NCBI RefSeq assembly: GCF_900119315.1
Contig: NZ_LT827010.1
Location: forward strand, 2,699,001 to 2,763,000
Origin: Actinoplanes sp. SE50/110
Lineage (GTDB): Bacteria > Actinomycetota > Actinomycetes > Mycobacteriales > Micromonosporaceae
Reading direction: 5' to 3'
Length of the DNA: 64,000 nt
The notes beneath the pieces are model-generated. The model did no database searches. It was not told the DNA's origin and was given only the letters and a program-made list of their open reading frames with translations. The translations under genes and the position numbers were made by a program. Of this stretch, positions 9,109 through 20,872 are shown piece after piece. Each line of letters starts with the position of its first letter. Position 1 is the stretch's first letter.

Positions 9109-9879
9109 TTATCCGTTGATCTTGTCGCGCCAGGCGAGGGCTTCGCGCAGCTCGCTCAGGTCGGGCTTCGGGCCGCCGACGCCGACGGTGAACAGCCGGG
9201 CGCCGAGTTCGTGCATCCGGTCGCGGCTGTCCGGCTTGCTCGCCACCGATACCTCGATCTCCGACGGGTCGCGGCCCACGTCGGAGCAGTGCCCGCGGAG
9301 CACGCCCAGCTTGTGCTCCAGGGTTTCCGCGTCGGCGAACGAGTGCCAGATGTCGGCGTGCTTGGCGACCAGGCGCAGCGTCTTCTTCTCGCCGCCGCCA
9401 CCGATCAGCACCGGGATCTTGCGGGTCGGCGGCGGGTTCAGCTTGCCCCAGCGCGACTCGATCCGCGGCAGCGCGCCCGCCAGGTCGTCGAGGCGGCCGC
9501 CGGCGGTGCCGAACTCGTAGCCGTACTCGGTGTAGTCGCGTTCGAACCACCCGGAGCCGATGCCGAGGATCAGCCGGCCGGCGGAGATGTGGTCGACGGT
9601 GCGGGCCATGTCGGCGAGCAGTTCCGGATTGCGGTAGCTGTTGCACGAGACCAGGGCGCCGATCTCGACCCGGGAGGTGGACTCGGCCCAGGCGGCGAGC
9701 ATGGTCCAGCACTCGAAGTGCAGACCGTCCGGCTCGCCGTACAGCGGATAGAAATGGTCCCAGTTGAACAGCACGTCGACGCCGAGGTCCTCGGCCTCGG
9801 CGGCGGTGCGGCGGATGGTGGCGTAATCCATGTGCTGGGGCTGCAGCTGAAGTCCGATGCGGACCGGCCTGTCGATCAT
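9109..9879 (-). CDS. LLM class F420-dependent oxidoreductase
   Basis: 256-aa TIM-barrel enzyme of the bacterial luciferase-like superfamily. Signatures include the N-terminal RIGLQLQPQHMDYATIRR, LFNWDHFYPLYGEPDG, DHISAGRLILGIGSGWFERDYTEYGYEFG and the phosphate-binding IPVLIGGGGEKKTLRL. Proteins with this GIGSGWFERDY pattern are mostly F420-dependent; substrate is unknown. The gene is monocistronic. Its first 31 nt and upstream 84 bp are repeated exactly at 20758-20872, where they cap a decayed paralogue, so this gene marks the left edge of the defence island. Confidence 0.9.
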   Translation of the reverse strand: MIDRPVRIGLQLQPQHMDYATIRRTAAEAEDLGVDVLFNWDHFYPLYGEPDGLHFECWTMLAAWAESTSRVEIGALVSCNSYRNPELLADMARTVDHISAGRLILGIGSGWFERDYTEYGYEFGTAGGRLDDLAGALPRIESRWGKLNPPPTRKIPVLIGGGGEKKTLRLVAKHADIWHSFADAETLEHKLGVLRGHCSDVGRDPSEIEVSVASKPDSRDRMHELGARLFTVGVGGPKPDLSELREALAWRDKING

Positions 9880-9963
9880 AGGAAGCAGGTTACGTGCCGA
9901 TACCGCCCCGGATCGGCTTGATGGTGACGAATCACTGGGCGGCGGCCGCCGGGATGCCGGGTG
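9849..9963. repeat. 115-bp direct repeat, left copy
   Basis: Base-for-base identical to 20758-20872 by eye. It contains the first 31 nt of the LLM gene and its upstream region, and ends in GGGATGCCGGGTG. Both copies have the same orientation and enclose about 10.8 kb. Confidence 0.92.
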
Positions 9964-10028: not shown

Positions 10029-10186
10029 CCTGGTAGGCAGCCGGTGACTGCGCGACGAGAACGTGTGGCCCCCACCCGATGAGGTGAATTCGACCTTTTG
10101 GGGGACGGCTTCCGATTCACAGGCGTCTAGGCTTCGCCGCCGGATGGCCTGATGGCACACAGCCTGTGAGGAACGGGAGACTGTCG

Positions 10187-12130
10187 ATGAAGATCGTTGC
10201 GTTGAGGCTGAGCAATTTTCAGTCGTTCGGCCCCGAGCCGACAACGATCGATCTTGATGACTTGACCTACATTCTCGGCCCGAATGGCTCCGGCAAGACT
10301 GCCGCTTTGGAGGCGCTTTCCCGGTTGTTCAGTCCACTGGCCGCGCAGCGTCAAATTCAGCCGGAGGACTTTCACGTGCCGGTCGATCGGTCCGCCAGTG
10401 AGGTGCAGGATGCCCAACCGACCCTCTGGCTAGAGGTCGATGTGTTGTGCCCTGAAGCGGGGGCCGGCGGGACACACGCGTCGGTACCGCCGTTCTTCGC
10501 GCACATGAGGATCGATACGGCGGACGGGATCCCGCAGATTCGAGTTCGGCTGACGGCACAACTGGCCGCAGACGGAGTCATCGACGAGAAGATCGAGTAC
10601 GTCCTGCAGGCTGACGCGGCAGGGGTGCCGACCAGCTGCACCCAGATGAGCCGTTTCGACCGCGCGCAGATCGAGGTGTACTACCTTCCAGCCCGCCGTG
10701 ACCCGGTAGATCACATCGCCTATACAGCGGCCTCGCTGATTGGACGTAGCCTGCGAGCAGCGGACTGGACGAGCGAGCGGGAGGTGCTTGGCGATCTATC
10801 TGCACAGATCACCGACACACTGGTCGCCAACGCCGCGGTGGCAGGTATCGGCGTGCACCTGACCAAGCAGTGGCAGAACCTGCACAGCGGCGGCTACTTC
10901 CGAGATCCCTCGATTGCCTTCGGGCGTGGCGATCTTGAGGGGGTGTTGCGTCAACTTACGGTGACGTTTTCCCCATCGCACGGCGGGGCATCCCTGCCAT
11001 TCGACCGGCTCAGTGACGGACAGAAGTCGTTGCTCTACATCTCGCTCGTCCTCTCCTGGCAATCGTTGGTCCGGCGGGTTCTGCGCGGTGAGGAAACTTC
11101 CCTGGATCCAGATCGGCTGCGCCCTCCTGTGCACGTCGTGATCGAGATCGAGGAGCCGGAGAACAGCCTCGCACCGCAGTATCTTGGCCGTATCATCCGT
11201 CAGGTGCGCGGCGCATGCTCGGCCGGCGACGTCCAGGCGCTGATCGCCACGCACGCGCCGGCTCTGCTAAGACGGGTTGACCCGGACACGATTCGCTTCT
11301 TGCGGCTCGACGCCGCCCGGCGGACGACTGTCGAGCGCATCGTTGTTCCGGCGGACGACGTATTGGCCGCGAAGTACGTCCGCGAGGCGGTCCAGGCGTA
11401 CCCGGAGCTGTACTTTTCCCGCCTTGTCGTGCTGGGCGAAGGCGACAGTGAGCAAGTGGTACTGCCCCGAGTCCTCGCCGCAGCCGGCATCGCCGAAGAC
11501 GACGCCTCCGTGTCGGTGGTTCCGCTGGGCGGTCGGCACGTCAACCACTTCTGGCGGCTGCTCAACCAACTCCACATCCCGCACGTCACCCTGCTTGACC
11601 TGGACAGCGGCCGTTATCACGGCGGCTGGGGCAGGGTACGCAACGCCATGCGGCAGCTCAATGCAGTCCAACCCGATACGTTCGCGGAAGCCCAGATCGA
11701 CCAGTTGCCGAAGTGGGATGACGACTGCGATTTTCCGCAGCCCGGATGCGGCCCCGACATCGGCGGTGGGCTCGGCCCGATCGATGTGCTGGAGCAGCAT
11801 GGCGTCTTCTTCTCCCAGCCAGTCGACCTTGACCTCATGATGCTGGCGGCCTATCCGACCGCCTATGCCGTCGACCCTCCCGCAAAACCGGACCCGCAGA
11901 CCGTCGTGGCCGTGCTTGGAAAGAGCCACAAAAACGAGATCCGCCTTCGCAGCGAGGTCCTTGACCTCTTCGACGAGTATCACCGGAAGTTTGACCTCGG
12001 CAGCAAGCCTGCGACACATCTGAGCGCCCTGGCTAGCCTCGACGACCAACACTTGCTCAAAGAATCACCCATGGTGCTTACCAGGATGGTCGAGCATGTG
12101 CGCGCGGTCCTGGGCGGCCTGCCGGAATGA
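10187..12130 (+). CDS. gajA: Gabija anti-phage protein GajA (OLD-family ATPase/TOPRIM nuclease)
   Basis: 647-aa protein. The ATPase domain has Walker A GPNGSGKT (~31-38), ABC-type signature LSDGQKS (~275-281), Walker B VVIEIEEPE (~317-325) and H-loop ATHAP. A C-terminal TOPRIM nuclease follows with LGEGDSEQ (catalytic Glu ~418) and LLDLDSG (DxD ~471-473). GajA of Gabija is a sequence-specific nicking endonuclease assembling with GajB; nucleotide depletion by phage activates it. The helicase gene starts in an ATGA overlap directly behind it, the defining Gabija arrangement. ATG 10187 has GGGAG at ~8 bp and is preferred over GTG 10166. At 647 aa it is somewhat longer than the B. cereus protein. 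A generic OLD nuclease is the alternative. Confidence 0.85.
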   Translation: MKIVALRLSNFQSFGPEPTTIDLDDLTYILGPNGSGKTAALEALSRLFSPLAAQRQIQPEDFHVPVDRSASEVQDAQPTLWLEVDVLCPEAGAGGTHASVPPFFAHMRIDTADGIPQIRVRLTAQLAADGVIDEKIEYVLQADAAGVPTSCTQMSRFDRAQIEVYYLPARRDPVDHIAYTAASLIGRSLRAADWTSEREVLGDLSAQITDTLVANAAVAGIGVHLTKQWQNLHSGGYFRDPSIAFGRGDLEGVLRQLTVTFSPSHGGASLPFDRLSDGQKSLLYISLVLSWQSLVRRVLRGEETSLDPDRLRPPVHVVIEIEEPENSLAPQYLGRIIRQVRGACSAGDVQALIATHAPALLRRVDPDTIRFLRLDAARRTTVERIVVPADDVLAAKYVREAVQAYPELYFSRLVVLGEGDSEQVVLPRVLAAAGIAEDDASVSVVPLGGRHVNHFWRLLNQLHIPHVTLLDLDSGRYHGGWGRVRNAMRQLNAVQPDTFAEAQIDQLPKWDDDCDFPQPGCGPDIGGGLGPIDVLEQHGVFFSQPVDLDLMMLAAYPTAYAVDPPAKPDPQTVVAVLGKSHKNEIRLRSEVLDLFDEYHRKFDLGSKPATHLSALASLDDQHLLKESPMVLTRMVEHVRAVLGGLPE

Positions 12131-13788
12131 TCCGCCCCGAGCACTGGCGGCCCGCAGACGGCCTGACGCTGGAACCGAATGCGCTGAAAGCGGCGACAGC
12201 GGCCGACCTCAACGCGGTGGTCGCCGCCGGGCCCGGCGCAGGGAAGACGGAGTTGCTTGCCCAGCGCGCAGACTTCCTGCTGCGTACCGGTCAGTGTCCG
12301 TACCCGCGCCGCATTCTGGCAGTCTCGTTCAAGGTCGATGCCGCTCGTAATCTGGCCGAACGGGTCCGCCGCCGCTGCGGGCCGACGCTCGCGGACCGGT
12401 TCGACAGTTTCACCTTCCACGCCTTCGCCAAGCGCCTCGTTGACAACTTCCGGCCAACGCTGACCGGTGCCAATGCCCTTGATTCGGATTACCGCATCGA
12501 TCGGCAGGACCGGATTGCCAGCAAACAGATCACGTTCGAAGACTTGGTTCCGCTTGGGCTGGAGATCGTCCAGGCCAACATCTATGCCCGGCGGGGCCTG
12601 GACCAGACCTACAGTCACGTCTTTCTCGACGAGTTCCAAGACTGCACAGCGGACCAGTACGAGCTGATCAAAGCGGTCTTCGGGCCGTCGACCGCCATCG
12701 TGACCGCTGTCGGCGACACCAAGCAGCGGATCATGCTTTGGGCCGGTGCTCTCGACGGAGTGCTGGAGACCTTCGCCGACGACTTCTCCGCCGTGCGTCT
12801 GCCGCTGTATCAGAACTTCCGCTCCGCGCCACGACTGCGGCGCATGCAGAACCGGATGATCGCCCAGATGGACCCCAGTGCCGTCAGCCCTGCGGAGGAT
12901 CTGGTCGGTGATGATGGCGTCATCGACGTCCTCGGCTTCTCTGACGAGTACCAGGAGTCGCGAACAGTCGGCGATCTTCTTTCCGGATGGCTCGGTCAAG
13001 GCGTGCCTCCGGCCGAGATCGCTGTGCTCGTACGCAACCAGCCGCACCTGGTCGCTTCGGTGCTTGGGGACGAACTGCGTGCACGCGGCATCGCCTTCCG
13101 CAACGAGCAGGAGAGTCAGGATCTCACCGCAGAGCCGATCGCGGCCCTCGTACTCAATTTCCTTCGAGTAGTCGCTGACGATCGGCAACCCCACGCCTAC
13201 GCCGACCTGATGAGGATCGTGGCCCGCACGAACGCCTCCGACGACGAGGTCGCACGCTTCGACAGCCAGGTCAAACGAATCATCACCACGGCTCGGATCG
13301 CCGTACGGGCTTCAACATTCACCCCCGACGACTCCGCAGGATGGCGGAACCTCGTCATTGGATTCCTGCGTCTGGTGTCCCGGCCGGTGTTGACCGCATT
13401 GTCGGCCAGCTACCAGCAGGGCAACCGCCTTGACGACCTTATCGTGCAGACGATGGCTGCTTTCGAACGGGAACTCGCCGTAGACGGCAACGCCGTACTA
13501 GCCCTGCGGCGGCTTTCTGAAGCCGACGCCGTGAGAGTCCTAACTATCCACAAGTGCAAGGGCTTAGAATTCGAGAAAGTCGTAGTGCTCGGCGTGGAGA
13601 CTCAGCTCTTCTGGAGTAAAGATTTGACGACGATCATGTCGGAGTTCTTCGTCGCGATCTCCCGCGCGAAACTGCACCTCGTCCTGACTCACGTCGAGCA
13701 CCGCGGCCGGCCGAGCGCCGCCACGAGACGATGGGATGAGCGGCGCTCATCCCATCAGACATTGCTCGGCTTCGCAGCTGAGGATTAA
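12127..13788 (+). CDS. gajB: Gabija protein GajB (UvrD/Rep-like SF1 helicase)
   Basis: 553-aa SF1A helicase: Walker A AAGPGAGKT (~33-41), DEFQD Walker B (167-171), GDTKQ motif III (195-199), QNFRS (228-232), TIHKCKGLEF (~473-482) and FVAISRAK (~508-515). It begins within the gajA stop (ATGA), so the two should be co-translated and form the GajA-GajB complex, in which GajB senses DNA termini and activates GajA. Leu480, inside the conserved HKCKGLEF motif, is encoded by the rare codon TTA (13564-13566). The last 60 bp also encode a 13-bp hairpin. The stop codon overlaps that of the converging gene. Confidence 0.87.
   Translation: MIRPEHWRPADGLTLEPNALKAATAADLNAVVAAGPGAGKTELLAQRADFLLRTGQCPYPRRILAVSFKVDAARNLAERVRRRCGPTLADRFDSFTFHAFAKRLVDNFRPTLTGANALDSDYRIDRQDRIASKQITFEDLVPLGLEIVQANIYARRGLDQTYSHVFLDEFQDCTADQYELIKAVFGPSTAIVTAVGDTKQRIMLWAGALDGVLETFADDFSAVRLPLYQNFRSAPRLRRMQNRMIAQMDPSAVSPAEDLVGDDGVIDVLGFSDEYQESRTVGDLLSGWLGQGVPPAEIAVLVRNQPHLVASVLGDELRARGIAFRNEQESQDLTAEPIAALVLNFLRVVADDRQPHAYADLMRIVARTNASDDEVARFDSQVKRIITTARIAVRASTFTPDDSAGWRNLVIGFLRLVSRPVLTALSASYQQGNRLDDLIVQTMAAFERELAVDGNAVLALRRLSEADAVRVLTIHKCKGLEFEKVVVLGVETQLFWSKDLTTIMSEFFVAISRAKLHLVLTHVEHRGRPSAATRRWDERRSSHQTLLGFAAED
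13730..13756. terminator. Perfect hairpin at the end of gajB, between converging genes
   Basis: GATGGGATGAGCG and CGCTCATCCCATC are perfect 13-base complements around one central base (about 11 bp with a 5-nt loop when folded). It lies inside the gajB coding region, 29 bp before the converging gene's stop. It could terminate the minus-strand CHAT transcript or act in both directions. No T-run on either side. Confidence 0.45.
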
Positions 13789-14471
13789 CCATCCAAGCTG
13801 CCGAGCTTGACGGAGCGGAGGACCGAGGGCAGGTCGGCGCGGTAAGGGATCAGGCCGAGGCGCCGGTGGCGGATGGTGGCGGCGAGGGAGATGTCGGCGT
13901 GGGCCGGGACACCAGCCGGCTTCTTGACGACGATCGTCAGTTCCTCGTCGCCGATCAGTGGCTGGCCGCTGACGGCGCGGAACCTCCATTCGGGGTCGCT
14001 GTCGCGTTCGCCCATGCCGACGAGGAACAGGTCCTCGCGGTTGCCTTGTGGCGCGTACTCAATGGCGGCTTCGGCGACTGTGAGGTTGGCGGTGAGCGCG
14101 ATCCGCCCGGTACGGGGCACCGTACGTACGCGGTGTTTGGGGCTGATCGACCAGGCGATCGGCTGACGGTCGGCGGGTTCGCCGGGAGCCTGCAGGTTGA
14201 CGCCGACGGCTGCGTCAACGATCGGGTCGCCGTTGGGGACGGCCCGGAACGAGCAGAACACGCTCAGCATGAGGTAGTCGTTGTCGGCGGCCTGGGCCTC
14301 AAGGAATTCGCGCCAGCCCGGGTCGGCGGAGATGGTGCCGGCTTCGAGCGGGCGTACCACCGGTGTGCCGAGCGTGACTCGGCCGCTAATTCGGGGTGCT
14401 GCTCCCGGTGACTGCAGGCGGGGTTCCAGCAGGAGGTCGACCTCGTGGATCGAGGTGTCGAGATCAGTCAT
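13785..14471 (-). CDS. Hypothetical companion of the CHAT protein
   Basis: 228-aa protein of unrecognised family. It has no signal peptide, membrane segment or catalytic motif I can name. Alternating hydrophobic residues (DYLMLSVFCSFRAV, GRIALTANLTVAEAAIEYA, EELTIVVKKP, HADISLAATI) suggest an all-beta fold. Its ATG lies 8 nt inside the end of the CHAT gene, so it is translationally coupled and probably a functional partner. It could be a regulator, sensor or proteolytic substrate of the CHAT protease; nothing in the sequence decides between these. It converges on gajB with stop codons overlapping. Confidence 0.75.
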   Translation of the reverse strand: MTDLDTSIHEVDLLLEPRLQSPGAAPRISGRVTLGTPVVRPLEAGTISADPGWREFLEAQAADNDYLMLSVFCSFRAVPNGDPIVDAAVGVNLQAPGEPADRQPIAWSISPKHRVRTVPRTGRIALTANLTVAEAAIEYAPQGNREDLFLVGMGERDSDPEWRFRAVSGQPLIGDEELTIVVKKPAGVPAHADISLAATIRHRRLGLIPYRADLPSVLRSVKLGSLDG

Positions 14472-17400
14472 TGGGCGGCTCCTCGGGGATAGTGGTACGC
14501 CAGTTGCCGACGAACGTGAAGGTGCCCCAGTCGCGGTAGGCGGGATGCCTGTCGCGGGTGCGCTGTTGGGCGGCCCGGAACGCCGAACGCCGGTCGGGGT
14601 CGACGGCCAGCCGTTCGTAGAGGTGGTGGAAGAATTCAGTGGCCACGGTCGGGTGGACGGGCCAGAGGCAGCCGATGACGGCGGTGGCGCCTGCAGAAAG
14701 TAGGGCGGCGGGCAGCCCGCGCAGATTGTCGTTGAGGTCGAAGCGGCCGAGCGCGGATTCGCAGGCGCTCAGGGTGACCAGTTCCACGCCGCGCAGATCG
14801 GTGCGCAGGATGTCGTGGGCGAAGACCCGGCCGCCCGAGAGGTACAGGCACTGGAACCAGGGCGCCCATTCGTTGTGGCTGCCGTGCGCGGCGACGTGGA
14901 CGTACCGTGCCTGGGTCAGGCCGGAGAGGAAGCGTTCGGGTGTAGCCGTGGAGCCGAGTACGGCCTCACCGCCCATCGCTGTGGCGACCTGGGCGGCGTG
15001 GCTCTCCAGGGCGTCCTCGACAGGTAGGCCGTGAGCGGTGCCGCCGCTACCTGAAGCGAACGCGACGAAGCCGCGCCGAACTGACGGTGGCTGTTCGCGG
15101 AGCATTTCGGGACTGGCGATCTGCGTGACGGTCCAGTCGTCGGCGGCCGGTCCTGTTCCGCTGGTGAGCAGGTGGAAGGGGACGTAGTGCAGCGGTCCGT
15201 CGGCCCAGACACACAGGTGACGGCGGCCTTCGGCGTGCCACTGGGGCATGCGGTCGGCGAAACCGGCGAGATAGGAGTCGGGTCGTTCGGACAGGTGCTG
15301 CTGGGCGTCGCGGCTGACGGCCCGGTGCAGCGGGTCGGCGGTGACACTGTTGCGTAGTTGCGCCACTCGGATGCCGAAGGGGGACAGGGCCAGGTGGTGG
15401 CTGCCGCGGTAGAGCCGGATCAGGCTGCCACCAGCGTCCGGGATCAGCAACGTGCGGTATTCGACGGCATCGCGGGTGACCGCCATGGCGTGCAGCGCGC
15501 CGGATGGATCGCCAGACGGTTTGCGGGCTTCACCGAGCATCAGTGACACGAACACCGTCTCCGGTGGCAGCATCGACTGCAGCTCGTCGAGGGGGATCGG
15601 TGGTGGTTGCCATGAACTGCGGGCGGAGGAGAGTTCTGCGCTGATCCGGCGGTCGGCCGCACGTTGCCGGTTGCGGGCCACCGCGTCAGGGCCGGTCTCG
15701 GTCTCGGCTTCACCGGATCCGGCGTACAAGGTCATGACCGTTTCTGCTCCGCCTGGCAGGTCGATGTCGGGCAGGCTTTGCTCGACTGGCATTTCCCGAA
15801 GTTCCCGCAGCAGACGTGGGCTGGCAGTGAACGGCCCGGGGGAATGCAGTGCCGAGGCCAGCCAGCGGCCTTTGGCGGCCTGGTGCAGCATGATCACGGC
15901 GTTGACGTCGACCTGACGGTCGGCGAGATGAAACAAGATCCGCTGGTAGAACTCGAACAGTGCCCAGGCCACAGGCTCACCTGGGGTACCGCTGAGGCCC
16001 GCGGCTGCCCACAGCAGCACGATTGCGGCCGAGCTGGTCTGATCGTTGTCGCAAAGGGTCATCTGAAGCCGCCCGGCGTCGAGGCTCGCGAGCGCCAGGT
16101 CGTGCTGGCGGCAGAGCGCGTACCGCAACGCGGCGGCACCGAATCGGCGGGCCGACTCCGGGTGCGTGCCGTCGTCGGCGGAGCGGGTGGCCAGATCGTA
16201 GGTGAGTCCGGCTTCGAGGTAGTCGATGGCGTCGCCGTGCCATCGCCACAGCTCAGGCGCTTCCTGGTGTGCCTCGGACAGCAGATCGAGAGCGTTGGCG
16301 ATGAGTTCCGGTGTTGCGCCGAAGGCGGTGTGCGCGGCGAGGTGAATAAACGTAGCGGCCAGCTCAGGCCCAGCTGCCACCGCCCGCACCTGGTCGACCA
16401 AGTCGGCGTCGACTCGTAGGTCCGGCGAGCAGGGCAGGACGCCGTCCGCGAGCAGGTGCACCTCGCTGCGCCACCGGACCCGTCGCTGCGCGTCACTCGC
16501 CAGTACGGGCAGGTGGTCGTCGGCAGCGGCGAGTAGCTCGGCCTCCAAATCGGGGCGCATCGCCTCACCGGCGAGCGTGAGCGCCTCGGCAAAGACCGAC
16601 GACGCCTCTGGTATGCCGTACCGGTCCCGCACCGTGGCCAGGGGCATCGCCAACAGCGAGTTCAGGTCGGGGGGCAGGGCGATCTCGCCGAATCGATACA
16701 GCACGCGAAGTACGTAAAGGAAACTGAGCTGGTCACGGGTTGGGTCCAGCAGGTCGAACGCCGTCCGGCACCCCGCCAGTGCCTCATCGTCGGCGGACTC
16801 CTGGCGCATCCCGGCTCGAAACGAATACGCCTCGACGAGCGCCTTGAGAATCCGGCCGCGGTCATGGCCGACGGCCAGGTCGGCTGCCTGCCGCAGATAT
16901 TCGACGGCGCGGTCGGCGGCGACGTCAGGAGGTGGCAAGGGTGTCGGGTCACCCTCGGGGTGGGCGGTCAGCCGGCGCTGATGCCGAGCCAGCCACAATT
17001 GGTGGGCGCCATCGAACGTCAGCCCGGACATTGTTCCTAGATACGGGGTCAGGTAGAGCAGGCCCGCGGCGAACAGGGTGCCGGCGCGCTCGGCGGGCTC
17101 GTCGACGAGCATCGTGAGCTGCCTGGTCGCCACGGCGTGCGCGGCGGCGAGACGATCGGCGTCCGGGTCGTCGAGCAAGCTGTGTCTCACCGCTTCGACG
17201 TAGGCGTCGGCGGCCGTCCACCACGGGCTGTCGCGGGTGGCTCCCCAACGATGTTCCGCCGCGTCCATGGCGAGCCGTGCCACCTCCACGTTCGCCACGG
17301 ATGTGTGGACGGCTAGGTCAATCGCCGTGGCGGATAGCGGGAACGACGGATCGGCGGCGTGCCGGGTCGCCTCCTGGTGTGACAACACTCGGGTCCGGAC

Positions 17401-18312
17401 GTGATCGGCGAGCTGCAGCAACGCGACAGCCTGCCGACGCTCCTCGCCATCCGCTGCGAGCGGGTGCTCCTCAACGGGAACAGATCCGGCGCGGACCTTC
17501 TCCTCGATTCGCAGAGCCATGACTCGCTGCAGATACGGCAGAACCGACGTGTCGCCGTCGGCGGCTCGGCGCAGCCAGCCGACGGCTTCCGTCAACAGCA
17601 CCGACGCCTGCTCTCCGAAGTGTAGGGCGAGCTGGCCCTGCCTCCCGAGTGCCGCCCCGAGTCCCTGGCAGGCGTGGGTGTACGAAGCCGAACCGGCGTC
17701 GAACCGATCGAGGGCGGCACGGTAGGCCGAGACGGCGTTCGTGAGATCGATGGAATCCCGGACAATGTCGAACCGGACCAGATGGGCGTCGCCGAGAAGG
17801 CTGTCACGGAAGCCGGCGTCGCTGGGCTCGTCGAGGTTCTGCAACTGCTCGATGACCGTCGCGACAGCAGCCGGATCGCTGGCCTCTTTCGCATCAACGA
17901 GCAGATCCTTGGCGCGGTCCAGTGGGTCTTGCCAGGGATCGTGGCCGGTCTCGCGGATGAGGTACGGCCACAGATCACGTGGCACCCGGCGGTGATCGAC
18001 CATGAACAGCAGTTCGTAGGTGGCGAGAGCACCAGCGAACTCAACCTCCGCCCGACCCTCCGGGTCCTCGCCCGGACGATCGTGCGTAGCGGTTGTGGAC
18101 TGCCAGACCAGACCACGCGTCCATTGGTATGCCGCGACAGCATGCAGGGCATCAGCGTCGACGTCCTCGCGGCCGGTTATCTCGTGGGTCGCCAGCCGGA
18201 GAAGCTCAGCTGCAGCATCCAGACCGCCGTCGGAGAGAAGCGGCTCCGGGGAGCCGGTTGTATGAAAGTGACGGACCCGGGTCACGAGATCAGCGATCAG
18301 CGCGTCCCGCAC
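14464..18312 (-). CDS. Large TPR-like CHAT-domain (caspase-family) protease
   Basis: 1282-aa protein. The N-terminal ~950 residues are alpha-helical with degenerate TPR-like repeats (for example DAVSAYRAALDRFDAGSASY in shape, and LLDLTRDQLSF-type helices) and no NTPase motif. The C-terminal ~280 residues are a CHAT domain, a clan CD cysteine peptidase related to caspases and separase. The catalytic His lies in YVHVAAHGSHNEW (~1143) and the Cys in LVTLSACESALG (~1184), followed by GLPAALLSAGATAVIGCLWPV in family position. The GTG at 18312 has GGAGG 9 bp upstream, so I prefer it over an in-frame GTG at 18360. TPR-CHAT proteins act as effector proteases in several bacterial immune systems (Craspase/TPR-CHAT, gasdermin loci). 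Its partner is the overlapping 228-aa gene. Confidence 0.88.
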   Translation of the reverse strand: MRDALIADLVTRVRHFHTTGSPEPLLSDGGLDAAAELLRLATHEITGREDVDADALHAVAAYQWTRGLVWQSTTATHDRPGEDPEGRAEVEFAGALATYELLFMVDHRRVPRDLWPYLIRETGHDPWQDPLDRAKDLLVDAKEASDPAAVATVIEQLQNLDEPSDAGFRDSLLGDAHLVRFDIVRDSIDLTNAVSAYRAALDRFDAGSASYTHACQGLGAALGRQGQLALHFGEQASVLLTEAVGWLRRAADGDTSVLPYLQRVMALRIEEKVRAGSVPVEEHPLAADGEERRQAVALLQLADHVRTRVLSHQEATRHAADPSFPLSATAIDLAVHTSVANVEVARLAMDAAEHRWGATRDSPWWTAADAYVEAVRHSLLDDPDADRLAAAHAVATRQLTMLVDEPAERAGTLFAAGLLYLTPYLGTMSGLTFDGAHQLWLARHQRRLTAHPEGDPTPLPPPDVAADRAVEYLRQAADLAVGHDRGRILKALVEAYSFRAGMRQESADDEALAGCRTAFDLLDPTRDQLSFLYVLRVLYRFGEIALPPDLNSLLAMPLATVRDRYGIPEASSVFAEALTLAGEAMRPDLEAELLAAADDHLPVLASDAQRRVRWRSEVHLLADGVLPCSPDLRVDADLVDQVRAVAAGPELAATFIHLAAHTAFGATPELIANALDLLSEAHQEAPELWRWHGDAIDYLEAGLTYDLATRSADDGTHPESARRFGAAALRYALCRQHDLALASLDAGRLQMTLCDNDQTSSAAIVLLWAAAGLSGTPGEPVAWALFEFYQRILFHLADRQVDVNAVIMLHQAAKGRWLASALHSPGPFTASPRLLRELREMPVEQSLPDIDLPGGAETVMTLYAGSGEAETETGPDAVARNRQRAADRRISAELSSARSSWQPPPIPLDELQSMLPPETVFVSLMLGEARKPSGDPSGALHAMAVTRDAVEYRTLLIPDAGGSLIRLYRGSHHLALSPFGIRVAQLRNSVTADPLHRAVSRDAQQHLSERPDSYLAGFADRMPQWHAEGRRHLCVWADGPLHYVPFHLLTSGTGPAADDWTVTQIASPEMLREQPPSVRRGFVAFASGSGGTAHGLPVEDALESHAAQVATAMGGEAVLGSTATPERFLSGLTQARYVHVAAHGSHNEWAPWFQCLYLSGGRVFAHDILRTDLRGVELVTLSACESALGRFDLNDNLRGLPAALLSAGATAVIGCLWPVHPTVATEFFHHLYERLAVDPDRRSAFRAAQQRTRDRHPAYRDWGTFTFVGNWRTTIPEEPPND

Positions 18313-18519
18313 TCCACACCACCTCCACTGACCCGCCCTGGGCGAGTCTAAGCACAACACTCAAGCGTGGCGTTTCGTTCGACGGCGGATGAGGGCTGTT
18401 GGGTCTCGTTGGCTCAACGTGTCAGACCCTGTCGATATCGTGGCGGCCTCGCCGCTGGTTGGTGCCCAGCCATAGTCAGTGAGCGTTCTCAGATGGCTTC
18501 GGTATGGTGTGGAGGTCTT
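18313..18519. promoter_or_regulatory. Divergent promoter region, CHAT operon / EVE-SRA-Shedu gene
   Basis: About 207 bp separate the two divergent starts. It is relatively A/T-rich for the window. Both genes have GGAGG Shine-Dalgarno sequences near their GTG starts (GGAGG at 18511-18515 for the plus gene). No convincing -10/-35 pair or operator palindrome was picked out by eye. Confidence 0.4.
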
Positions 18520-20244
18520 GTGAAACAGTGGTTGATGGTGGCCGAAGGTGGCCCGGCTGCCTACGAAAGTCCACACCATCGAGTCACCCGTGGATGGGAG
18601 ACGTCCTACTGCCGTAGCCGCGACGAACACGACGTGGCGGAGGTCGCGGAAGGCGACGGGATCGCATTGATCCGGGTAGGCCGTTATGGAGGTGTTGTTG
18701 CGCACGGCCGTGCTACCTCGGTGATCGCAGAGCATCACCGCGATGGAGGAAAGCGGCTGGGATGCCAACCGCGCGAGATCACGGTCCGGTTCGACAAGAC
18801 CTACCTCAGCGCACCGGTGCCGATGCGCCTGCTGTCGGACATCGGCGGGCTGACAAAAGCCCGGTACGTTCGGGCTGCTCGCTACATGCCGGCGGCACCG
18901 CTTGAGATCACTGTTGAGACGTGGGAGTCATTGCTGCGGGGAACGCAGGCTCCGGGCCCGTATGAATGGCCGATGGGCTGGGATCTCGACGCCGGCACCA
19001 TCGTCGGGCGCGGAGATGTGCACGACGTTTATGGCGGTCAACGGCAGGGGAGCATCGGGCGCAGCGGCACCACCCCCAACACATTTCTGTTCCTTGGGGC
19101 CGGAAGCCACGGCGTGCCGTTTACCCACCGTTGGGCCGACGACGGTGCGCTGGTGCTTGTCGGCAAGCCGGAAGATATTGGTCGCGGCGAGCCGCCCGCA
19201 ACTCCTGCGGGTTTCGAAAACCGGCTCGTTCTGCGGCACCTGCGCTCGGGGCTTCCTCTGCGAGTCTTTCAAAGCAACGGCAGGAAATCGGTCACCTACC
19301 TCGGTGAGGTGATCATTGATCAGGAGCACCCGGTCGAAGGCTGGATCGAGGCGGCAGCCCCGCCTCAGCCGCCCTCGTTGCCGCCGCCCTATACGGACCC
19401 GGGTAATCCGCCCACGGCTCGGCAGTTCAGAGCGCCGTTGCTGCGCGTACACCCGGTTACCTCGCTCACCCCGTTCGTGTCAGCGGAGCAGCAACCGCGG
19501 AGTCAACGTCAGAGACTACGGCTGAGGGTGATTCGGTCGGCCAGCGAGCCGGTATCGGGTCCCGCAACGCGGTCGGTGTCAGACTCCGAGCTTTACCGGC
19601 AGGCCGCCGATCGGTTACGGGAAGCGCCAGCCGGGGCAGCACCAGAACTGGCGGACGTCGCCGAGTTCGCTGAACTGGTGATCCGGCGGGGTCGGGCCGC
19701 CGGGCTGGCCGAGCTACGACGTCTTGTCCTCGATCCCGGCACCCGAGAGCCAGCCATTCAGCGCATCCTTGAGCAGCACTCCTGGGTGTTCGGAGGCGAA
19801 TTCATGGGTGTCGCCGCTCGGCGAGCGCTGTCGTTGAGCGATCAGCTCGACATCCCACTTATCCGCGGCGACGGCACCCTTCATGGTGTCGAGATCAAAC
19901 GCGCGTGCATCGCGAAACTTGTCGTTGCTCATCGGGGCCGAGCCGTCGTCGGTGAACCAGTCCACGAGGCTGTCGTCCAAGCCATGAACTACCTTCGTGG
20001 CTTGGACGAGCAGCGCCACACCGTTCTCAACGAGTACGGTGTCGACGCCCGCCGAGCGTCGATGACTGTCGTCATCGGCGCCCCTGCGTTCGTTCGCGAG
20101 CAGTTCACCCGGCAGGAGATCGCCGAGGCAATCCGCACCTACAACTCCCATCTGAGCCGGGTCAAAGTGGTCACCTATCCCGAGCTGCTTGCAGCCGCAG
20201 AAAGGATGCTGCAGCTTGCTGCGCCCCCGCAGGCCCGCCGGTGA
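18520..20244 (+). CDS. EVE/PUA-like + SRA-like + Shedu-type (DUF4263) nuclease fusion
   Basis: 574-aa protein with three apparent modules. Residues ~2-110 (KQWLMVAEGGPA, GWETSY, EGDGIALIRVG, VVAHGRATS, VRFDKTYL) resemble the EVE/PUA-like readers found on HNH/McrA nucleases. Residues ~158-267 (GTIVGRGDVHDVYGGQRQGSI, RWADDGALVLVG, LRHLRSGLPLRVFQ) resemble the ScoMcrA-type SRA domain, which recognises modified DNA. Residues ~408-560 match Shedu DUF4263: EPAIQRILEQHSWVFGGEF, then LDIPLI, VEIKR (D444, E458, K460 as PD-(D/E)xK residues) and the helical VVQAMNYLRGL. GTG 18520 follows GGAGG by 4 nt and starts exactly where the first domain begins. Leu366 uses TTA. It probably cleaves modified phage DNA; domain calls are by eye. 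Confidence 0.8.
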   Translation: MKQWLMVAEGGPAAYESPHHRVTRGWETSYCRSRDEHDVAEVAEGDGIALIRVGRYGGVVAHGRATSVIAEHHRDGGKRLGCQPREITVRFDKTYLSAPVPMRLLSDIGGLTKARYVRAARYMPAAPLEITVETWESLLRGTQAPGPYEWPMGWDLDAGTIVGRGDVHDVYGGQRQGSIGRSGTTPNTFLFLGAGSHGVPFTHRWADDGALVLVGKPEDIGRGEPPATPAGFENRLVLRHLRSGLPLRVFQSNGRKSVTYLGEVIIDQEHPVEGWIEAAAPPQPPSLPPPYTDPGNPPTARQFRAPLLRVHPVTSLTPFVSAEQQPRSQRQRLRLRVIRSASEPVSGPATRSVSDSELYRQAADRLREAPAGAAPELADVAEFAELVIRRGRAAGLAELRRLVLDPGTREPAIQRILEQHSWVFGGEFMGVAARRALSLSDQLDIPLIRGDGTLHGVEIKRACIAKLVVAHRGRAVVGEPVHEAVVQAMNYLRGLDEQRHTVLNEYGVDARRASMTVVIGAPAFVREQFTRQEIAEAIRTYNSHLSRVKVVTYPELLAAAERMLQLAAPPQARR

Positions 20245-20373: not shown

Positions 20374-20790
20374 CTATGCGTTGCGCTGGTCGCGCCAGGT
20401 GAGAAACTCACGGAGTTCGGTGAGGTCGGGGGTGGGGCCGCCGGTGTGGATGGTGAACAGGCGGGCGCCCAGCTCGTACATCTTGTCGCGGTCTTCGGTC
20501 TTGCCCATCACGGAGATCTCGATCTCGGAGGGGTCGCGGCTGATGTCGGCGCAGTGCTGCCCGAGGACGCCGAGTTTGCGTTCCAGGGTTTCCGAGTCGG
20601 AGAAGCTGTGCCAGATGTTCGCGTGCTTGGCCGTGAGGCGGAGCGTCTTCTTCTCGCCTCCCTGCCGATCAGGACGGGGATGTCGCGGGTCGGCTTCGGG
20701 TTCAACTTCTCCCAGCGGGATTCGATGCGGGGGAGTGCGGTCGCTGGCGCTGCAGTCGAAGTCCGATGCGGACCGGCCTGTCGATCATAG
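20374..20790 (-). pseudogene. Decayed LLM oxidoreductase, chimeric with the 9.1-kb gene's 5' end
   Basis: The minus strand encodes the C-terminal half of a paralogue of the 9109-9879 enzyme (NPKPTRDIPVLIG, then ETLE-like and DRDKMYELGARLFTI-like segments in another frame). There is a 1-bp deletion around 20660 where the family has IPVLIGGGGEKK. The central ~120 residues are missing. The remaining first ten codons and upstream DNA are identical to the intact gene. The body differs at many positions, so this is an old paralogue later fused to, or gene-converted by, the intact copy. It cannot make a functional enzyme. Confidence 0.85.
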
Positions 20791-20872
20791 GAAGCAGGTT
20801 ACGTGCCGATACCGCCCCGGATCGGCTTGATGGTGACGAATCACTGGGCGGCGGCCGCCGGGATGCCGGGTG
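20758..20872. repeat. 115-bp direct repeat, right copy
   Basis: Identical to 9849-9963. It covers the first ten codons of the truncated LLM copy and its upstream region, and runs straight into the 65-bp tandem repeats. A partial unit of that repeat (GGGATGCCGGGTG) also closes the left copy. Confidence 0.92.

What the first reader, a model, noticed from the sequence alone, without database searches (positions are those of the whole stretch)
18520..20244. EVE/PUA-like, SRA-like and Shedu-type nuclease in one protein
Three modules read in order: a first domain like the EVE readers on McrA-type nucleases, a GRGDVHDVYGGQRQG...ADDG...LRVFQ block like the ScoMcrA SRA domain, and a DUF4263/Shedu PD-(D/E)xK nuclease (LDIPLI...VEIKR). 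Shedu proteins carry varied N-terminal sensors. Two modified-base readers on one Shedu nuclease would make it a single-gene modification-dependent restriction factor, a version I do not recognise as characterised.
Basis: partly seen in the sequence, partly recalled or inferred. Interest (0 to 1): 0.82.

Follow-up and report, generated by a model that had tools for sequence, protein, structure and literature searches.

The report
Shedu nuclease with EVE-SRA sensor
A one-gene bacterial anti-phage nuclease of the Shedu family carries, in place of its usual sensor, two domains of the kind that feel chemically marked DNA bases, but one of the two has lost the residues normally used to hold such a base, so what it senses has to be tested.

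Summary
The ORF at 18520-20244 encodes 574 aa: an EVE-like domain (~1-140), a ScoMcrA-type SRA domain (~148-315) and a Shedu PD-(D/E)XK nuclease (~366-574; D444, E458, K460 kept). Shedu: Pfam 2.6e-10, PADLOC 3.3e-73. SRA: a Shedu-only profile finds free SRA proteins (best 2e-16); the predicted fold matches ScoMcrA SRA (Z 12.0). EVE: weaker; no Pfam or PDB match and no usable model, but one profile-profile comparison gives 93%.

The architecture was found in 4 of 354 genomes of the host family, plus one truncated gene; the five group together on the Shedu tree. All four intact copies lie within about 5 kb of known or candidate defence genes (here Gabija and a CHAT protein).

'Two modified-base readers' is only partly supported. 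The Y/acid/Y residues that hold a flipped cytosine are kept in 24 of 24 free SRA relatives (12 of them fetched without a pattern that demands the second Y), but the acid is gone in 5 of 5 Shedu relatives. Best reading: the EVE-like domain may read a modified base, the SRA module grips DNA or reads something else, and both gate the nuclease. New sensor architecture on a known nuclease; activity untested; the 2025 Shedu survey could not be read.

The parts
18511..18515 (+). GGAGG ribosome-binding site, 4 bases before the GTG start
   Evidence: read directly
18520..20244 (+). EVE-SRA-Shedu gene, 574 aa
   Evidence: relatives L001, L004, L033 align over the whole length
18520..18939 (+). EVE-like domain, residues ~1-140
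   Evidence: hhalign against EVE proteins prob 93.1, E 3.2e-7; no Pfam hit, no PDB hit, AF2 models uninformative
18961..19464 (+). ScoMcrA-type SRA domain, residues ~148-315
   Evidence: sequence; its family to 5zmm/5zmn; fold
19120..19158 (+). changed SRA base pocket: F201, H203, L213 where free SRA relatives have Y, D/E, Y
   Evidence: alignment; pocket roles from PMC6212794 passages
19465..19614 (+). linker, residues ~316-365, poorly conserved
   Evidence: 34-46% identity in four pairs
19615..20241 (+). Shedu (SduA/DUF4263) PD-(D/E)XK nuclease, residues ~366-574
   Evidence: PF14082 at 409-557; PDLC00401 at 386-565; family profile hits PDB 8ps4 Shedu effector, E 2.3e-6
19849..19899 (+). catalytic motif D444 ... 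E458-x-K460
   Evidence: invariant in 5 of 5 relatives; that these are the catalytic residues is from knowledge of the PD-(D/E)XK fold
10166..12130 (+). neighbour: GajA (Gabija)
   Evidence: PADLOC 1.2e-233
12127..13788 (+). neighbour: GajB (Gabija)
   Evidence: PADLOC 3.1e-195
14464..18360 (-). neighbour, divergent: 1298-aa CHAT protein (TPR-like N-terminus presumed, not shown)
   Evidence: PF12770 CHAT 4.9e-38; PADLOC BovA 1.9e-8 on the CHAT part
9834..9963 (.). left copy of a 130-base direct repeat bounding the island
   Evidence: 98% identical, 10,909 bases apart
20743..20872 (.). right copy of the 130-base direct repeat

Best explanation
It is a single-gene anti-phage nuclease of the Shedu family whose N-terminal sensor has been replaced, probably once, by two PUA-superfamily DNA-reading domains. 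Shown: a Shedu nuclease with its motif residues kept, an SRA-family domain, remote but controlled similarity of the first domain to EVE, grouping of the five relatives on the Shedu tree, defence genes nearby, and loss of the canonical SRA pocket residues. Inferred: the two N-terminal domains bind DNA; the EVE-like domain is the likelier reader of a modified (probably pyrimidine) base in invading DNA; the SRA domain, its cytosine pocket gone, serves as a second DNA grip or reads a different feature; engagement of DNA by this pair releases the Shedu nuclease from an inhibited state and it cuts near the bound site.
For: Shedu nuclease. SRA. EVE. Same architecture in L001/L003, L004, L033 (and truncated L036). 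One group on the Shedu tree: support 90/86 for five, 98/91 for the four intact. Known or candidate defence genes within about 5 kb of 4 of 4 intact copies: Gabija and CHAT; C5 methylase, MzaB-like ATPase and Vsr; PDC-S48 and, about 3 kb off, a phage integrase; PDC-M02A/B homologues. Third codon positions differ more than second in every domain of four pairs. Precedents: EVE-HNH VcaM4I flips 5mC/5hmC (PMC7897488 passages); HHPV4I is a modification-dependent enzyme with a seemingly inactive SRA and another domain doing the reading (PMC10101028 passages). Shedu autoinhibition is relieved when the N-terminal clamp binds DNA ends (PMC12904381 passages).
Against: No activity data. The EVE assignment rests on one kind of profile comparison with small profiles; other EVE sets scored 0.5-9%, Pfam and PDB give nothing, models fail, and EVE pocket residues were not mapped. 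In L033 a Glu lies next to the gapped acid column, so a different gap placement could restore an acid there. Two of five host genomes carry a C5 cytosine methylase, one 4-5 kb from the gene, so a nuclease that cut at any 5mC would harm those hosts. Reported Shedu recognise DNA ends, not modified bases, so the fused domains may be plain clamps. No background rate of defence genes was measured for the neighbourhood claim.
Confidence: 0.5

Rival explanations
1. The EVE-SRA pair is a DNA-end or DNA-structure clamp, as in other Shedu, and does not read base modification at all; PUA folds were recruited only for their DNA-binding surface.
For: EcSduA acts at DNA ends through an N-terminal clamp (PMC12904381 passages); the SRA pocket acid is gone in 5 of 5; other relatives of the same nuclease carry quite different N-termini.
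Against: Two base-reader folds in tandem would be an odd choice for end binding; EVE domains recur in modification-dependent nucleases (PMC7641849 passages and section 9).
Confidence: 0.27
2. One reading: both domains read modified cytosine (or phosphorothioate), making a two-reader type IV restriction enzyme.
For: Domain content; the window's genome and two of the other four hosts have no C5 methylase match, so 5mC would be foreign there.
Against: SRA pocket acid 0 of 5 versus 24 of 24 in free relatives; a C5 methylase in 2 of 5 hosts; no sulfur-binding domain listed, no dndC match in 5 of 5.
Confidence: 0.1
3. The SRA pocket has been remodelled to take a different, bulkier or non-cytosine base, and this domain is the specific reader.
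For: The pocket changed in all five relatives while a neighbouring Trp and the G and N positions stay; the window and L001 have an insertion after the pocket loop.
Against: The replacing residues differ among the five relatives (F/H/L, F/F/F, S/gap/V, H/gap/V, I/A/V), which looks more like relaxed constraint than a new shared pocket.
Confidence: 0.1

Closest known systems
Shedu (SduA, DUF4263), PADLOC subfamily PDLC00401; EcSduA
   Same: C-terminal PD-(D/E)XK nuclease with D, E-x-K; single gene; variable N-terminus; defence neighbourhoods
   Different: L007 matches PDLC00401 over 1-400 of 404 and so carries that subfamily's own N-terminal region; here 365 aa of EVE-like plus SRA precede the nuclease
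ScoMcrA (5zmm/5zmn)
   Same: SRA domain of the same sequence family and fold
   Different: ScoMcrA is SBD-SRA-HNH (abstract of PMC7461809 in the listing); here neither SBD nor HNH is listed by Pfam, and the Y, D, Y seen by eye in ScoMcrA's printed stretch are changed
SRA-HNH (TagI, ScoA3IV) and SRA-PD-(D/E)XK (MspJI, PvuRts1I) enzymes
   Same: SRA sensor fused to a nuclease
   Different: TagI has Y55/D58/Y67 (PMC6212794 passages); here F/H/L, and the nuclease is Shedu-type
EVE-HNH VcaM4I and EVE-PD-(D/E)XK proteins
   Same: EVE sensor on a nuclease (PMC7897488 passages; PMC7641849 section 9)
   Different: a second PUA-fold domain and a Shedu nuclease; the EVE match is remote
L025, uncharacterised 735-aa protein of another actinobacterial genome
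   Same: looks by eye to combine an EVE-like N-terminus, an SRA domain and a nuclease-like C-terminus
   Different: nuclease is not Shedu by eye; SRA pocket intact; the EVE-HNH-like set that contains its N-terminus scored 27% against the EVE set
HHPV4I (archaeal virus)
   Same: two sensor-type domains, SRA apparently inactive (PMC10101028 passages)
   Different: other reader is a winged helix, nuclease is HNH

Membership tests
Shedu (SduA) | C-terminal SduA/DUF4263 nuclease domain | tested here: met
   PF14082 41.2 bits against cut-off 27; PDLC00401 E 3.3e-73
Shedu (SduA) | PD-(D/E)XK motif residues | tested here: met
   D444, E458, K460 invariant in 5 of 5
Shedu (SduA) | variable N-terminal domain, defence neighbourhood | tested here: met
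   no background rate measured
Shedu (SduA) | oligomeric, autoinhibited nuclease that restricts phage | not testable with these tools
   needs protein and phage assays
ScoMcrA-type SRA domain | sequence family | tested here: met
   Shedu-only profile finds SRA-family proteins at E 2.0e-16 to 1.5e-5 in 5 of 396 genomes; that family (12 rows, no Shedu) finds 5zmn at 1.3e-8; adding three Shedu rows weakens this to 1.1e-7
ScoMcrA-type SRA domain | SRA fold | tested here: met
   model 154-312, ten-residue mean pLDDT 61-89; Foldseek ScoMcrA E 1.5e-4, prob 1.00; 5zmn_A Z 12.0, rmsd 3.4, 135 aligned; 12 of the 14 rows behind the model were free SRA domains, which favours this fold
ScoMcrA-type SRA domain | Tyr/acid/Tyr pocket for the flipped modified cytosine | tested here: not met
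   F201, H203, L213; acid 0 of 5 versus 24 of 24
EVE domain | Pfam PF01878 match | tested here: not met
   no family for any of 4 members at E up to 10
EVE domain | profile similarity to accepted EVE proteins | tested here: met
   prob 93.1, score 45.6; best of 60 column shuffles 17.6; Shedu 12.4 and SRA 14.0 as real controls; but 0.5-9% with other sets
EVE domain | EVE fold | tested here: inconclusive
   pLDDT 36.5 with two sequences
Type IV modification-dependent restriction enzyme | cleavage depends on DNA modification | not testable with these tools
   needs assay
Type IV modification-dependent restriction enzyme | host DNA lacks the target modification | tested here: inconclusive
   C5 methylase in 2 of 5 hosts, none in 3 of 5 including the window's genome; dndC in 0 of 5, though no control genome passed that model's cut-off either
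ScoMcrA enzyme | sulfur-binding and HNH domains | tested here: not met
   Pfam at E up to 1 lists only SduA_C and one sub-threshold hit

The most novel reading that the evidence does not exclude
A Shedu nuclease under two-key control: the EVE-like domain reads a modified base and the SRA domain, with a rebuilt or emptied pocket, checks a second feature (another modification, a DNA end or strand state), so the nuclease fires only on DNA that shows both. This would link Shedu immunity with type IV restriction.
Probability: 0.25. Interest if true: 0.78.

Novelty: new variant of a known kind. Interest (0 to 1): 0.55.

Why it matters
Shedu varies its N-terminal sensor, and what many of these sensors detect is not known to me. 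Here the sensor is made of two domains whose relatives have known base-flipping chemistry, so the question 'what does a Shedu sensor feel?' becomes a direct binding and restriction test. The lost SRA pocket gives a clear prediction that separates the two domains. If modification-dependent, it would join single-gene Shedu immunity to type IV restriction.

Tried and rejected
Phosphorothioate sensing: no sulfur-binding domain listed, no dndC match in 5 of 5 hosts (that model passed its cut-off in 0 of 14 control genomes, so the negative is soft). A constant partner gene: the neighbours that I examined differ among the four intact copies, so the divergent CHAT gene is not a constant partner. Pseudogene: open frame, kept motif residues and codon-position pattern argue against it for the window copy; L036 (G518) ends soon after VHEAVTQA and was described only. 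Empty site for the island: the gene right of it has a match in 17 of 60 genomes of the genus, own included; in the 11 loci of other genomes that I examined (about 1.5 kb of flank) none had the luciferase-like gene, so no empty site was shown. Viral relatives by pattern scan: none for the whole protein, the EVE-like part, the Shedu part or the EVE set; 13 for free SRA. Plasmids: 3 records, Shedu part only; phages none. PDB: the whole protein finds only one chance-level chain (E 0.28); the N-terminal profile only chance-level ones (best 0.89). Structure of the EVE-like part failed twice.

EVE comparison in full: the four N-termini scored 1.2% against the EVE-HNH-like set, 0.5% against small Pfam-EVE, 78.5% against L088+L089 and 9.0% against EVE-HNH-like plus L088+L089. 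I then enlarged the set that scored best (L089 homologues), so the 93% follows a choice made after a first look. Combinations gave 52-93%. EVE groups also score low against each other (4.5% with small Pfam-EVE, 27% with the EVE-HNH-like set, whose EVE nature I presumed), so these profiles are weak.

Pocket count: 12 of the 24 free SRA rows came from a scan whose pattern requires the second Tyr, so only the other 12 (fetched by similarity; Y 12 of 12, acid 12 of 12, Y 12 of 12) are free of that bias for that column. One near-duplicate viral row (L078) was left out. The acid column is two residues after the first Tyr in most members of this SRA family, three after it in UHRF1/TagI, so the match to D469/D58 rests on alignment.

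Literature, listings only unless said: Shedu with 'SRA domain' 0 papers; with 'EVE domain' 1 paper, whose passages do not describe this fusion; DUF4263 5 papers (not opened for this); broader searches. The two main 2025 Shedu papers (Loeff et al. Cell; Gu et al. Mol Cell) are not held. I recall that Gu et al. list dozens of N-terminal types in several classes; EVE or SRA may be among them, so I do not claim the architecture is unreported.

Full report
What is there. Window 18520-20244 (+) encodes a 574-residue protein. GGAGG lies four bases before the GTG start, and three full-length relatives start at the same residue. It is a single match in a 9.24-Mb, one-contig genome.

Nuclease. Residues 409-557 match Pfam SduA_C (2.6e-10, 41.2 bits against a cut-off of 27) and 386-565 match PADLOC SduA PDLC00401 (3.3e-73). 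A profile of eight relatives finds the solved 'Shedu effector protein' 8ps4 (2.3e-6). D444, E458 and K460 are invariant in 5 of 5 relatives of the same architecture.

SRA domain. No Pfam model matches the middle region of this protein. Searched with the whole protein, 397 genomes of the order gave seven places that match only within residues 143-281, and a profile made from three Shedu relatives only (residues 1-290) found proteins in five further genomes of 396 of the phylum at 2.0e-16 to 1.5e-5, all confined to the middle region. By eye their C-termini differ, some reading as PD-(D/E)XK or HNH nucleases. A profile of 12 of these, without Shedu rows, finds ScoMcrA in the PDB (5zmn 1.3e-8, 5zmm 2.5e-8) and SUVH5 SRA (0.0096); with three Shedu rows added the hits weaken to 1.1e-7 and 0.41. 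One member, L021, hits Pfam SAD_SRA at 1.7e-4, below that model's cut-off. The AlphaFold model of residues 1-320 is usable only from about 154 to 312 (ten-residue means 61-89); Foldseek gives AspBHI and ScoMcrA at E 1.5e-4, probability 1.00, and SUVH5, and VIA-align ranks the ScoMcrA SRA first with Z 12.0, rmsd 3.4, 135 aligned. Twelve of the 14 rows behind the model were free SRA domains, so it is not independent of the sequence result.

EVE-like domain. Pfam finds nothing in any of four N-termini at E up to 10, the PDB search gives only chance-level hits, and two structure predictions fail (pLDDT under 50). Profile-profile comparison of five N-termini with eight EVE sequences (L088 and L089, which pass the Pfam EVE cut-off, and six homologues of L089) gives probability 93.1%, E 3.2e-7, score 45.6 over 104 columns. 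Sixty column shuffles reach at most 17.6; the Shedu and SRA families score 12.4 and 14.0. In an earlier round other sets scored 0.5%, 1.2% and 9.0%, and L088+L089 alone 78.5%; I enlarged the set that scored best. EVE groups score only 4.5% and 27% against each other, so low scores say little. I call it EVE-like, with support of a single kind.

The pocket. In TagI and UHRF1 the flipped base is held by two tyrosines and an acid (TagI Y55, D58, Y67; PMC6212794 passages). In 24 of 24 SRA relatives outside Shedu the matching columns are Y, D or E, and Y. In the five Shedu relatives an acid is present in 0 of 5; the first column is aromatic (F) in 2 of 5, the second (F) in 1 of 5; the window has F201, H203, L213. 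The neighbouring Trp is kept in 5 of 5. Caveats: 12 of the 24 were fetched with a pattern that requires the second Tyr, so for that column only the other 12 of 12 count; in L033 a Glu stands beside the gapped acid column; the acid column is two residues after the first Tyr in most of this family and three in UHRF1/TagI. So the domain keeps its fold but, most likely, not the usual means to select cytosine. HHPV4I offers a precedent: its SRA seems inactive and another domain reads the base (PMC10101028 passages).

Distribution and origin. Full-length matches: 3 of 397 order genomes including the window's own and 4 of 354 family genomes including its own, plus a truncated fifth in G518. These searches scored only three first-look candidates per genome (six), so the counts are lower bounds. 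None by pattern scan in viral contigs; none in phages; plasmids only the Shedu part. One named relative is Micromonospora sp. KC606 (65% identity). Of 37 Shedu ORFs collected, 34 had more than 60 residues before the nuclease by my crude domain start; their N-termini fall into clusters of 14, 5 (EVE-SRA), 5, 3 (XhoI-like) and 2, plus five singletons, some cut short by a misplaced domain start. In an unrooted tree of 33 nuclease domains (four short ones dropped, the short L036 kept) the EVE-SRA group is one side of a branch, support 90/86, which misses the tool's 95/80 mark; the four intact members have 98/91. Codon positions: third-position differences exceed second in every domain of four pairs, the linker included, by small margins in the distant pairs; the SRA part is less conserved than the nuclease in 4 of 4 pairs, the EVE-like part in 3 of 4 with one tie.

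Neighbourhood. In the window the gene lies in a stretch of lower GC (63-69% against 69-76% in the 4 kb to the left and 7 kb to the right) with Gabija GajA and GajB (1.2e-233, 3.1e-195), a 228-aa protein without Pfam match and a divergent 1298-aa CHAT protein (CHAT 4.9e-38). A 130-base direct repeat, 98% identical, bounds the block at 9834-9963 and 20743-20872, next to a luciferase-like monooxygenase gene and a 77% identical partial copy. An empty site was looked for and not found. The other intact copies: L001 within about 4 kb of a C5 methylase, MzaB-like ATPase and Vsr; L004/L060 about 1 kb from PDC-S48 (3.5e-174) and 3 kb from a phage integrase; L033/L061 within about 3 kb of PDC-M02A/B homologues, the B match being partial. 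So 4 of 4 lie near known or candidate defence genes; I scanned chosen neighbours only and measured no background rate. No partner was common to the four.

Self and target. A C5 methylase match is present in 2 of 5 host genomes and absent in 3 of 5, including the window's own; dndC is absent in 5 of 5, with no control genome over that model's cut-off. A nuclease that cuts at any 5mC would be harmful in the two hosts with a C5 methylase; 5hmC, another base or a context-limited 5mC remain open.

Mechanism. The best-supported reading is a Shedu nuclease in which an EVE-SRA pair replaces the usual N-terminal sensor. EcSduA binds DNA ends through its N-terminal clamp, which relieves inhibition (PMC12904381 passages); EVE and SRA domains in restriction enzymes bind DNA and flip bases (PMC7897488 passages; PMC7641849 passages and section 9). 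I infer that the EVE-like domain is the likelier base reader and the SRA domain a grip or a reader of something else. The chief rival is a plain end or structure clamp.

Novelty. The nuclease, the SRA and the EVE domain are known kinds; I saw no report of the combination on Shedu in the listings. The key 2025 survey of Shedu N-termini could not be read, so prior listing of the architecture is possible.

Noticed in passing
window 10166-13788: Both Gabija genes (GajA, GajB) upstream in the same island.
   Followed up: partly
window 13785-18360 (-): 1298-aa CHAT protein with an overlapping 228-aa gene of no Pfam family, divergent from the Shedu gene; the CHAT part weakly matches Csx29 and BovA models.
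   Followed up: partly
window 9834-9963 and 20743-20872: 130-base direct repeat (98%) bounding the defence block, with a 77% partial copy of a luciferase-like monooxygenase gene at about 20375-20744; mode of insertion unknown.
   Followed up: partly
L044:685-2076, L048, L050: Shedu nucleases with an XhoI-like restriction-endonuclease N-terminus (L044: Pfam XhoI 2.7e-22 and SduA_C 1.7e-16; the other two by clustering): two nuclease folds on one protein.
   Followed up: partly
L025:925-3132 (-): 735-aa protein that by eye joins an EVE-like N-terminus, an SRA domain with intact pocket and a nuclease-like C-terminus.
   Followed up: no
L001:126-4061: C5 methylase, MzaB-like GHKL ATPase and Vsr endonuclease cluster near the Micromonospora copy.
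   Followed up: no
L066:1366-2445: SRA domain followed by a C-terminal part with a GVELHIEVKG motif in another actinobacterial family.
   Followed up: no
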